Source: Paludibacteraceae bacterium
GTDB taxonomy: Bacteria > Bacteroidota > Bacteroidia > Bacteroidales > Paludibacteraceae
Reading direction: 5' to 3'
Assembly (NCBI GenBank): GCA_017451525.1
Contig: JAFTOD010000002.1
Coordinates: 1 to 64,000 of the forward strand
DNA length: 64,000 nucleotides
The notes beneath the pieces are model-generated. The model saw only the letters and a list, made by a program, of their open reading frames with translations. It had not been told where the DNA came from and made no database searches. Shown here in pieces: positions 35-28,314 of the stretch (position 1 is the first letter of the stretch; each line of letters opens with the position of its first letter). The position numbers and the translations under genes are program-made.

Positions 35-144
35 TTTAGGTGGTTATAGCGCTGAGGTCCCACCCCTTCCCATTCCGAACAGGGTCGTTAAGCTCAGCAA
101 CGCCGATGGTACTGCGTTTGTGGGAGAGTAGGTAGCCGCCATTT
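35..144 (+). rRNA. 5S ribosomal RNA
   Basis: The segment has the conserved 5S core (CCCATTCCGAACAGGG, GCCGATGGTACTGC, GGGAGAGTAGGTAGCCGCC) and its ends pair to close helix I (TTAGGTGG with the complementary GCCGCC end). It is the large-subunit 5S rRNA. It presumably ends an rrn operon whose 16S and 23S genes lie left of the window. A strong hairpin terminator follows directly. The ends are placed from the closing helix and may be off by a few bases. Confidence 0.93.
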
Positions 145-27292: not shown

Positions 27293-27363
27293 ATCGGGTT
27301 AATAACAAGGGATCCCCCTATCTTTATCCCGCCTTCTATATGCTTCTTTCCCGCTATCTTTCT

Positions 27364-27407
27364 CGAAACCACACCGTTATCATCTCGTTACCACTTCATT
27401 GCCATCC
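27364..27407. repeat. 11-bp micro-tandem array
   Basis: Four units are consecutive: CGAAACCACAC, CGTTATCATCT, CGTTACCACTT, CATTGCCATCC. It lies about 55 bases before the promoter of the structured leader at 27460. Confidence 0.55.
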
Positions 27408-27459
27408 AATACTTTCCCCGTACTCTCCAACTATTTTTTATATTTTTTCCCTCTTCCTC

Positions 27460-27490
27460 TTGCGCAAATCAAAAAAATGTAGTAATTTTG
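27460..27490 (+). promoter_or_regulatory. promoter of the structured leader / T9SS-FISUMP operon
   Basis: TTG at 27460-27462 and TAATTTTG at 27483-27490 have a 20-bp spacer. Transcription would begin near 27497, about 325 bases before the first start codon. Confidence 0.72.
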
Positions 27491-27500
27491 CAACCGCAAA

Positions 27501-27748
27501 CCCAAAGTTTGCAGACATATTATTAAAAGCGTTTATTAGCGCTTGTTTTAGAGATTCGAAATCCTGCAAAATTTCATCCTATCTAAAACAAGAAGGCAGT
27601 AAACGCCCTTTGGGATATGACTATCCCGCCCACAGAGCATCCTTTATTGGATTGCTCTGTTTGGTGGCATTCATATTCGGCGTGGGCGTTCGTTGCTTAT
27701 TCTTATAGGATAGGGTCTTGCAGGAACCTCGAATCTGAGAATAAGCAA
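27501..27748 (+). ncRNA. candidate structured RNA leader, family not recognised
   Basis: Nested stems are CCCAAAG (27501-27507)/CTTTGGG (27608-27614), GCGTTTA (27529-27535)/TAAACGC (27600-27606) and CTTGTTTTAGA (27542-27552)/TCTAAAACAAG (27582-27592). Further hairpins are GGGATA (27612-27617)/TATCCC (27622-27627), CAGAGCA (27633-27639)/TGCTCTG (27653-27659) inside CGCCCAC (27627-27633)/GTGGGCG (27682-27688), and TTGCTTATTCT (27693-27703)/AGAATAAGCAA (27738-27748). The big loops 27553-27582 and 27705-27735 are complementary to each other in three ordered 7-base blocks. It has a good promoter and lies before a surface-protein operon. It lacks the hallmarks of tmRNA, RNase P RNA and SRP RNA. It could be a switch-like leader or a separate small RNA. 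Confidence 0.7.
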
Positions 27749-27822
27749 AGGTAAGGTTCCACGCTTTTCTTTTATATTCACGGGTCGTTTGGAGCCGACT
27801 TCCCACAAATCATTCAATAACA

Positions 27823-28314
27823 ATGAAGAATAAGTTTATTCTCATTTGTGCCTTGCTTTGTTCTTCACAGGCGTGGGCTGTTATACCCAGTCTGGTAGTC
27901 AAACCCCTAAGTGGCAAAGAGTGTATCACGGCATTAGGCAACATCGGCAAGGTAGTGTATTCGGGCGACTCGCTGTATGTATATGACGCAGCCCAGAATG
28001 TGGTGTTCAGCGACTTGCTCGCCAACGTGCAACATATCCGTTTCTCGGATGAGCAGCCAAGTACGCCAAACAGTGTAGAGAATACACAGGGTAACAATGC
28101 CTTGCAAGTAAAAGTGTATCCCAACCCTACGCAAGACATTTTAATGGTGGAGCATGCGCAAAGCGAAGTGTTGCGATTGTACTCTATGGATGGTCGTTTG
28201 GTGGTAACACAGGCAGTAGAGAGCGGTTCTGCGCAAGTGGATATGGCAGAGTTGCCCACAGGTAACTACTTACTACTCAGTGGCAATCAATCTTTCCAAG
28301 TAATTAAACAATAA
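27823..28314 (+). CDS. secreted protein with T9SS C-terminal signal
   Basis: The protein is 163 residues: signal peptide to about residue 20 (LICALLCSSQAWA), then a short beta-rich domain (about 21-85) I do not recognise. A T9SS type A sorting domain closes it (VKVYPNPTQDILMVEH, LRLYSMDGRLVV and LPTGNYLLLSGNQSFQVIKQ). It would be exported by the type IX system and attached to, or released from, the cell surface. It begins about 325 bases after a promoter, behind the structured leader at 27501-27748, and is followed after 13 bp by the FISUMP gene, so the two form an operon. Confidence 0.82.
   Translation: MKNKFILICALLCSSQAWAVIPSLVVKPLSGKECITALGNIGKVVYSGDSLYVYDAAQNVVFSDLLANVQHIRFSDEQPSTPNSVENTQGNNALQVKVYPNPTQDILMVEHAQSEVLRLYSMDGRLVVTQAVESGSAQVDMAELPTGNYLLLSGNQSFQVIKQ

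What the first reader, a model, noticed from the sequence alone, without database searches (positions are those of the whole stretch)
27497..27822. Leader RNA with two hairpin loops complementary to each other over ~30 bases
A Bacteroidota promoter (27460-27490) is followed by about 325 non-coding bases with at least six perfect stems of 6-11 bp. The loop of one hairpin (27553-27582) is complementary to the loop of a second (27705-27735) in three ordered blocks: GATTCGA/TCGAATC, CCTGCAA/TTGCAGG and ATCCTAT/ATAGGAT. Chance is a poor explanation for three 7-base blocks in antiparallel order. Either the loops kiss as a large pseudoknot, or two folds exclude each other, as in a switch. It lies before a T9SS + FISUMP surface-protein operon. 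I do not recognise it as tmRNA, RNase P, SRP RNA or a riboswitch class I know.
Basis: partly seen in the sequence, partly recalled or inferred. Interest (0 to 1): 0.78.

Follow-up and report, generated by a model that had tools for sequence, protein, structure and literature searches.

The report
Leader RNA with matched hypervariable loops
Gut bacteria of the order Bacteroidales carry a large family of mRNA leaders, not found in the RNA-family library searched, in which two hairpins appear to hold each other through three short stretches that differ from copy to copy yet stay complementary, next to what looks like a transcription stop switch.

Summary
The leader at 27497-27822 is one of 29 copies in its own genome (E<=0.001); the family is in 59 of 61 genus genomes, 76 of 120 family genomes and 52 of 198 order genomes. 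Rfam shows no match. The three blocks differ between copies but stay paired: block 1 pairs 6/6 in 103 of 111 distinct copies against 190 of 12,210 swapped pairs; blocks 2 and 3 covary too. Linkers pair inside their own hairpin, which favours two hairpins joined loop to loop over one rod; the rod's outer flank does not covary, its inner flank does weakly. Below lie a conserved stem followed by a U-rich tract (116 of 117 scored copies) and a competing pairing. A gene of at least 100 codons starts within 110 nt in 104 of 136 copies, against 24.6% of random places. Best reading: a 5'-UTR transcription attenuator locked by a three-block, possibly paranemic, loop-loop complex. The structure is well supported; switch and signal are inferred. 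No within-genome avoidance of cross-pairing was found.

The parts
27460..27490 (+). Bacteroidota-type promoter (TTG ... TAATTTTG)
   Evidence: sequence; same pattern upstream of 25 of 29 own-genome copies, expected 0.06 per stretch searched
27496..27512 (+). 5' hairpin GCAAAC/GTTTGC at the presumed transcript start; sequence differs between copies
   Evidence: copies, by eye
27514..27519 (+). conserved GACATA
27525..27535 (+). segment 1 (AAAAGCGTTTA): can pair with segment 2 or segment 4
   Evidence: 1:2 paired in 99.6% of cells, 1:4 in 98.0%, both almost without double changes
27542..27552 (+). arm a of hairpin 1
   Evidence: a:a': 83.5% of cells paired, 4 of 10 pairs with double changes; cognate -12.6 vs non-cognate -7.8 kcal/mol
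27552..27557 (+). variable block V1
   Evidence: 103 of 111 distinct copies 6/6 paired with V1'; helix 3
27558..27575 (+). inner hairpin alpha (GAAAT ... ATTTC) carrying V2 (27563-27569) in its loop
27576..27582 (+). variable block V3
27582..27592 (+). arm a' of hairpin 1
27600..27608 (+). segment 2 (TAAACGCCC): pairs with segment 1 or segment 3
   Evidence: 2:3: 90.6% of cells paired, 3 of 7 pairs with double changes
27609..27679 (+). variable apical domain between segments 2 and 3
   Evidence: length and sequence differ between subfamilies
27680..27690 (+). segment 3 (GCGTGGGCGTT): pairs with segment 2 or segment 4
27693..27703 (+). arm b of hairpin 2
   Evidence: b:b': 97.3% of cells paired, 5 of 11 pairs with double changes
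27705..27711 (+). V3' (pairs with V3)
27713..27729 (+). inner hairpin beta (GGGT ... ACCT) carrying V2' (27718-27724) in its loop
   Evidence: innermost pair T-A 53, C-G 51, T-G 6, other 1 of 111
27731..27736 (+). V1' (pairs with V1)
27738..27748 (+). arm b' of hairpin 2
27759..27773 (+). segment 4 (CCACGC) and U-rich tract: terminator-like 3' end
   Evidence: 3:4 paired in 99.8% of cells, one pair with double changes; at least 5 T in 8 nt in 116 of 117 scored copies
27782..27804 (+). short hairpin before the start codon, seen in copies of the window's subfamily
   Evidence: by eye; not tested
27823..28314 (+). downstream gene: exported-looking protein with a T9SS C-terminal sorting domain

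Best explanation
A 5'-untranslated leader RNA of a large family in Bacteroidales. SHOWN by comparison: two hairpins, each made of an outer stem, an internal loop (V1/V3 or V3'/V1'), a small inner stem and a terminal loop (V2 or V2'), with complementarity kept between the hairpins in V2:V2' (as in a kissing loop) and in V1:V1' and V3:V3' (internal loop to internal loop). The blocks differ from copy to copy but stay complementary within a copy. Four conserved segments below the hairpins can pair in two ways: 1:2 with 3:4, where 3:4 is a GC-rich stem before a U-rich tract, or 2:3 with 1:4 (1:4 is the weakest of these). INFERRED: 3:4 plus the tract is an intrinsic transcription terminator in front of the gene, and 2:3 is the antiterminator. 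The hairpin-hairpin complex forms as hairpin 2 leaves the polymerase and holds segments 2 and 3 together, so the gene is transcribed. An unknown signal (metabolite, protein, other RNA or temperature) that weakens or strengthens the complex sets the output. Because inter- and intra-hairpin helices alternate in short segments, the contact could be paranemic (side by side, without threading); this topology is inferred.
For: V1 pairing 103/111 vs 190/12,210 swapped. Alignment A2, 72 chosen sequences: a:a', b:b', V1, 1:2 and 3:4 together have 358 double-change cells against 106.5 in shuffles, 0/500, and at most 80 when slid; V2+V3 246 against 69.1, 0/500; 2:3 with 1:4 50 against 12.4, 0/500, 47 of the 50 from 2:3. 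Alignment A3, 48 sequences: 3:4, b:b' and beta 68 against 26.6, 0/500. The rod's outer flank a:b' shows nothing beyond shuffles: 94.0 vs 93.6% paired. The beta innermost pair covaries. Cognate beats the mean non-cognate pairing among order-level copies in 25/28 for 2:3, 22/28 for 3:4, 21/29 for 1:2. U-rich tract in 116/117, including all 26 scored with an A-run of two or fewer in segment 1 (at least two of these mis-scored). Gene of at least 100 codons within 110 nt in 104/136 against 986 of 4,000 random places. G-U exceeds A-C in every outer and lower stem, so one strand is selected. Promoter upstream of 25/29 own copies.
Against: No expression or termination data. Without pseudoknots the minimum of the window copy is the rod (-104.5), 6.8 kcal/mol below the two-hairpin fold (-97.7) and 12.2 below the cloverleaf fold (-92.3), loop-loop energy not counted. 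The rod's inner flank a':b covaries weakly: 46 double-change cells against 29.0, 1/500, and its crude duplex comparison favours cognates (-16.0 vs -10.6). 1:4 is nearly invariant, and cognate beats non-cognate in only 14/29. A simple scan reports no terminator at 27759-27773 (its stem is interrupted by hairpin 2) but two terminator-like sites elsewhere in the leader. Covariation cannot show that all helices exist at once. Downstream genes share no evident pathway.
Confidence: 0.55

Rival explanations
1. A rod-shaped long hairpin: the two loops are the middle of one extended helix (a:b', V1, V2, V3, a':b). It could also be a later state of the same RNA.
For: It is the minimum free energy fold without pseudoknots. 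Its inner flank a':b covaries weakly, 46 vs 29.0 double-change cells, 1/500, and cognate duplexes are stronger, -16.0 vs -10.6, in windows that also contain other pairing segments.
Against: Its outer flank a:b' does not covary beyond shuffles and is barely better in cognate than non-cognate combinations, -8.3 vs -6.6. The linkers are partly mismatched across the rod but complementary within each hairpin, and the beta innermost pair covaries (the search pattern fixed part of the linkers, not this pair).
Confidence: 0.15
2. A structural leader that protects the mRNA 5' end or controls translation, without transcription attenuation.
For: Close to the start codon; strong structure; the window's subfamily has a further hairpin just before the ATG (by eye).
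Against: The U-rich tract after a GC-rich stem is kept in 116 of 117 scored copies, also where segment 1 has no long A-run, and segment 3 keeps two competing partners.
Confidence: 0.23
3. A stand-alone small RNA gene whose loops act on other RNAs, with the downstream gene incidental.
For: Own promoter and terminator-like end.
Against: A gene follows at short distance far more often than at random places (104/136 vs 24.6%). In the own genome the three-block pattern of the window copy occurs only in its own two loops (exact matches, this copy only). V1 and V3 leave no constant seed.
Confidence: 0.08
4. A single-stranded DNA recombination site (attC-like) or mobile cassette end whose hairpins guide integration of genes.
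For: Leaders appear to be exchanged between genes, downstream genes are diverse, and paired but variable hairpins recall attC sites (recalled).
Against: Promoter, U-rich tract and short spacing to a gene are kept, which a DNA site would not need. The G-U/A-C asymmetry shows that one strand is selected but does not by itself exclude a strand-specific DNA hairpin. No match in phage records or, with one exact pattern, in viral contigs.
Confidence: 0.05

Closest known systems
Intrinsic-terminator attenuators and riboswitch leaders (terminator/antiterminator type)
   Same: 5' leader between promoter and gene, GC stem plus U-rich tract, competing upstream pairing
   Different: Terminator stem is interrupted by a whole hairpin; a three-block loop-loop complex of variable sequence takes the place of a known sensor; no ligand known; 29 copies in one genome before unrelated genes
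Riboswitches with loop-loop contacts (purine L2-L3, cobalamin L5-L13; recalled)
   Same: Two hairpins held together by loop pairing
   Different: One contact there; here three ordered blocks of about 6-8 bp that differ in most copies
Antisense kissing systems (RNAI/RNAII, CopA/CopT; recalled)
   Same: Complementary hairpin loops
   Different: Intermolecular there; both partners lie in one leader here
Designed paranemic (PX) RNA motifs
   Same: Alternating intra- and inter-hairpin helical segments
   Different: Designed; [quoted passage not shown] That the natural contact is paranemic is inferred; the original RNA design paper was not held
FopS/GibS sRNAs of Bacteroides (PMC11697453, passages)
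   Same: Multicopy paralogous RNA family in Bacteroidales (12-15 FopS copies in the species named)
   Different: FopS are about 65-70 nt sRNAs with a shared seed acting on susC-type mRNAs

Membership tests
Any Rfam 15 family | covariance-model score at the curated threshold | tested here: not met
   Window: only 5S rRNA elsewhere, five weak sub-threshold hits near the element; 13 related loci: one SAM-II in L161, away from the leader; L271 none up to E 1
Transcription attenuator leader | 5' leader of a co-directional gene | tested here: met
   133 of 136 by a loose rule that 65.2% of random places also pass; by a strict rule 104 of 136 against 24.6%
Transcription attenuator leader | GC-rich stem followed by U-tract | tested here: met
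   3:4 99.8% of cells paired; at least 5 T in 8 nt in 116/117 scored copies; uninterrupted T-run of 5 or more in 110 of 136; not reported by the simple scan
Transcription attenuator leader | alternative pairing exclusive with the terminator stem | tested here: met
   2:3 covaries and overlaps segment 3; in the window's subfamily the overlap is partial (shared GG); in four compact copies it looks complete by eye
Transcription attenuator leader | regulated RNA 3' ends at the U-tract | not testable with these tools
   no RNA-seq available
Riboswitch | a ligand that changes the fold | not testable with these tools
   downstream genes suggest no single pathway
Paranemic (PX-type) contact | short inter-hairpin helices alternating with intra-hairpin helices | tested here: met
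   each helix is supported on its own: V1/V3 and V2 between, alpha/beta and outer stems within hairpins
Paranemic (PX-type) contact | all helices present at once without strand threading | not testable with these tools
   needs a 3D structure
FopS/GibS sRNA family | about 65-70 nt sRNA with shared 5' seed | tested here: not met
   leader core about 190-370 nt with variable blocks; paper passages
Integron attC site | folded single-stranded DNA with integrase boxes, acting in recombination | tested here: inconclusive
   one strand is selected, which a strand-specific DNA hairpin could share; integrase boxes not tested; attC features recalled

The most novel reading that the evidence does not exclude
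A natural paranemic RNA lock: within each leader two dumbbell hairpins are held side by side by three short helices without strand threading, and the lock drives a four-segment helix exchange (a branch-migration-like swap between 1:2 + 3:4 and 1:4 + 2:3) that decides transcription termination. Each leader carries its own sequence key, and tens of such locks work in one cell.
Probability: 0.3. Interest if true: 0.9.

Novelty: new variant of a known kind. Interest (0 to 1): 0.8.

Why it matters
If right, this would be an abundant structured leader RNA of gut Bacteroidales that is absent from Rfam, and it would put many genes, often for exported-looking proteins, under one RNA-based control. Its loop-loop complex offers a natural series of matched sequence sets for one architecture (93 different V1 hexamers in 111 distinct copies): a test bed for kissing and paranemic RNA design, for RNA structure prediction and for how RNA partners coevolve. 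The search for its signal is directly testable in laboratory Bacteroides strains.

Tried and rejected
Rod fold: favoured by nested energy and weakly by its inner flank (this check, made last, raised the rod rival from 0.12 to 0.15), disfavoured by its outer flank and by the linkers.

Guide or target role of the blocks: the three-block pattern of the window copy occurs in the own genome only in its two loops; a looser two-block pattern gave one other place, G000:C7:136806-136842, not followed. Only this copy's blocks were searched.

Orthogonality: I expected V sets in one genome to avoid each other; the test was negative (V1 at least 5/6 in 8.3% of 956 within-genome and 9.2% of 10,134 between-genome swaps; 6/6 in 1.6% and 1.2%; identical V1 in 3 of 481 and 17 of 5,084 pairs).

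Rate of change: V1 differs as much in copies 0-4% diverged elsewhere as in distant ones, but the other columns are constrained and are no clock. With four-fold sites as clock (16 pairs that I chose from those) I cannot separate conversion of whole leaders from point changes in the blocks.

1:4 pairing: cognate better than non-cognate in only 14/29. Terminator scan: none at the proposed site. Phage DNA search: no match; viral contigs: none with one exact pattern.

Literature: no natural paranemic RNA and no matching leader seen in the listings; these cover open-licence papers only.

Full report
WHAT IS THERE. The stretch 27460-27822 holds a Bacteroidota-type promoter and a leader in front of a gene for an exported-looking protein with a T9SS sorting tail. 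The leader folds 7.5 standard deviations better than shuffles. Rfam 15 gives no match in it at threshold and only five weak sub-threshold hits.

IT IS A FAMILY. A DNA search of the own genome found related copies. A covariance model of the 3' half (R1, 20 sequences) finds 29 copies at E<=0.001 in the own genome (32 matches at E<=0.05, two of them antisense to known copies). It is in 59 of 61 genomes of the genus with up to 31 matches per genome, in 76 of 120 of the family and 27 of 33 genera, and in 47 of 198 of the order. A broader model (R2, 48 sequences) finds 52 of 198 order genomes, 42 of 151 genera. Large calls use stricter filters, so these are lower bounds. In the phylum samples 4 of 296 (R1) and 5 of 247 (R2) genomes match at E<=1e-5, the own genome included. 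Four genomes outside the order matched in all, and I read all four: compact copies in which V2 and V3 are paired, V1 fully in three and 4 of 6 in L273 (by eye). Of 40 named loci found with one exact pattern, 34 are titled Paludibacteraceae MAGs, from ruminant guts.

THE BLOCKS COVARY. I had 136 copies: 29 own, 7 of G014, and 100 picked from high-scoring rows, so not a random sample. The script found both cores in 124, dropped 6 without any block-2 match and merged duplicates, leaving 111. The 5' core was chosen with help of block 2, so block 2 is not independent; blocks 1 and 3 are. V1 pairs 6 of 6 in 103 of 111; of the eight misses three look like register shifts of my pattern and the rest have real mismatches (by eye). 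Swapped pairs reach 6 of 6 in 190 of 12,210. The longest V3 run averages 6.37 against 3.81; 18 of 111 have a V3 run of 4 or less in the offsets allowed. No permutation of 300 reached either sum. 93 different V1 hexamers occur. V2 has a Watson-Crick run of at least 7 in 104 of 111, but a smaller set of sequences.

In an alignment of 72 copies that I chose (without those with a 35-nt insert and without the compact ones), five of the eight V1 pairs use all four Watson-Crick pairs and 98.3% of V1 cells are paired. a:a' and b:b' have 4 of 10 and 5 of 11 pairs with changes on both sides, with 83.5 and 97.3% of cells paired. V2 and V3 together have 246 double-change cells against 69.1 in shuffles; some rows are misaligned there, and 86.7% of cells are paired. 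G-U makes up 3.0, 0.0 and 4.0% of V1, V2 and V3 cells but 4.9-24.9% of the other stems, and G-U exceeds A-C in every outer and lower stem. So one strand is under selection, and the V helices prefer strict pairs, as loop-loop contacts should (inference).

TWO HAIRPINS RATHER THAN A ROD. GAAA and TTTC in hairpin 1 pair with each other around V2, and AGGY and RCCT in hairpin 2 pair around V2'. The innermost beta pair is T-A 53, C-G 51, T-G 6 and one other of 111; the patterns fixed part of the linkers but not this pair. Cognate a:a' and b:b' duplexes are stronger than non-cognate ones (-12.6 vs -7.8; -15.0 vs -8.2), a:b' hardly (-8.3 vs -6.6); a':b is also stronger (-16.0 vs -10.6), in windows that contain other pairing segments. 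Counted by column, the rod flank a:b' has nothing beyond shuffles (94.0 vs 93.6%), while the flank a':b has weak covariation (46 double-change cells vs 29.0, 1 of 500; 79.1% paired). That flank may reflect a rod state or an extension of the 2:3 helix. Segments of about 6-8 bp between hairpins alternate with segments of about 3-5 bp within hairpins, which would permit a paranemic contact; closing 20 bp between two closed 30-nt loops would otherwise need threading (inference).

THE SWITCH BELOW. Segments 1 (AAAAGCGTTTA), 2 (TAAACGCCC), 3 (GCGTGGGCGTT) and 4 (CCACGC + U-rich tract) can pair as 1:2 + 3:4 or 2:3 + 1:4. 1:2 and 3:4 are paired in 99.6 and 99.8% of cells, with changes mostly on one side and one 3:4 pair with double changes. 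2:3 is paired in 90.6% and has three pairs with double changes; 1:4 is paired in 98.0% with three double-change cells. In the 48-sequence set two 3:4 pairs have double changes. Explicit 3:4 counts give 101 of 101 paired at five of seven positions, 94 and 99 at the others; 10 of 111 copies did not fit the pattern, and the pattern itself fixes several letters. Among order-level copies cognate beats the non-cognate mean in 25/28 (2:3), 22/28 (3:4), 21/29 (1:2) and 14/29 (1:4), so 1:4 is not supported by that test, although single copies show compensation, such as GAAATGCG with CGCATTTC in G313:C39:97379. At least five T within eight bases follow segment 4 in 116 of 117 scored copies (1 of 118 not scored; the pattern required two T), and in all 26 scored with an A-run of two or less in segment 1, at least two of which were mis-scored. 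An uninterrupted run of five or more T is present in 110 of 136. I read this as an intrinsic terminator with a competing antiterminator. A generic scan did not report it and reported two other terminator-like sites in the leader.

CONTEXT. 133 of 136 copies have a co-directional open frame of at least 50 codons within 300 nt, median 56 nt; the other three lie near contig ends. That rule is loose: 65.2% of 4,000 random places in the window pass it. By a stricter rule (at least 100 codons, start within 110 nt) 104 of 136 leaders and 24.6% of random places pass. 95 of 133 have a hydrophobic N-terminus by a crude rule, against 15 of 39 open frames of 200 aa or more in the window, spurious frames included. 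Of 20 proteins scanned, 11 have a Pfam hit at E<=0.001 (T9SS tail, FISUMP below its cut-off, MBOAT, two BspA-type repeat proteins, caspase-like, GtrA, subtilase, ubiquitin-like, C10 protease, DUF805) and 9 none. The promoter pattern stands upstream of 25 of 29 own copies; three of the four without it are copies of one subfamily (E) that may lie inside operons (inference).

EVOLUTION. Some homologous downstream genes carry leaders of different subtypes: G014:L048 vs G074:C63 (four-fold sites 8 of 75 different, non-V leader positions 24.7%) and G055:C89 vs G074:C40 (8 of 53, 36.3%), so whole leaders appear to be exchanged. Other pairs keep the leader type but change the blocks on both sides: two MBOAT leaders of the own genome have V1 5 of 6 changed on each strand, non-V 4.9%, four-fold 59 of 178; G041:C48 vs G055:C79 have V1 3 of 6 changed at 1 of 60 four-fold sites. 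In 4 of the 16 chosen pairs V1 is unchanged (four-fold divergence 2, 4, 11 and 19%; two of these leaders have no non-V difference either). Cross-pairing within genomes is not avoided more than between genomes.

KNOWN OR NEW. Rfam has no match in the leader, in 13 related loci apart from a SAM-II elsewhere in one, or in a distant copy. Earlier surveys list Bacteroidetes candidates (Table 1 of PMC2864571, passages; PMC8040213, passages); I recognised none of the names as this RNA, and their supplements could not be opened. The FopS sRNAs (PMC11697453, passages) differ in size and design. A designed paranemic RNA is described as without natural homologs (PMC10168427, passages); the review PMC10376919 was seen in passages. 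Searches behind the statement that nothing was found in print.

VERDICT. The two-hairpin structure and the matched blocks are well supported. The attenuator function is the best reading, at about 0.55 together with the structure. The paranemic lock is the boldest reading not excluded, at about 0.3.

Noticed in passing
G000:C2:121527-121626 (L145) and L056 (G014:C18:38207-38275): Reduced copies: one lacks the 5' half with hairpin 1, the other keeps only the closing arms and the 3' hairpin, yet both still precede an open frame.
   Followed up: partly
L156:1643-3100, gene after G000:C4:286334: Exported-looking protein with a ubiquitin-like domain near its N-terminus and an InlB-type repeat domain.
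   Followed up: no
window about 27330-27425 and upstream of L008, in part L002 and L003: A pyrimidine-rich block of about 90 bases is shared, by eye, upstream of several leader copies of the own genome; it could help recombination between leaders.
   Followed up: no
own copies L058, L132, L133, L135, L136: An insert of about 35 nt that can form a hairpin lies between segment 1 and arm a in some copies.
   Followed up: no
L161 2051-2110: SAM-II riboswitch near one leader copy in a related genome.
   Followed up: no
L161, L089, L090, L216 (G063:C42), L224 (G055:C36): Proteins that start with a Tat-like ELQSRREFFK stretch follow leader copies in four genera, so this leader-gene link seems conserved.
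   Followed up: partly
window 36-144: 5S rRNA gene at the window start.
   Followed up: no
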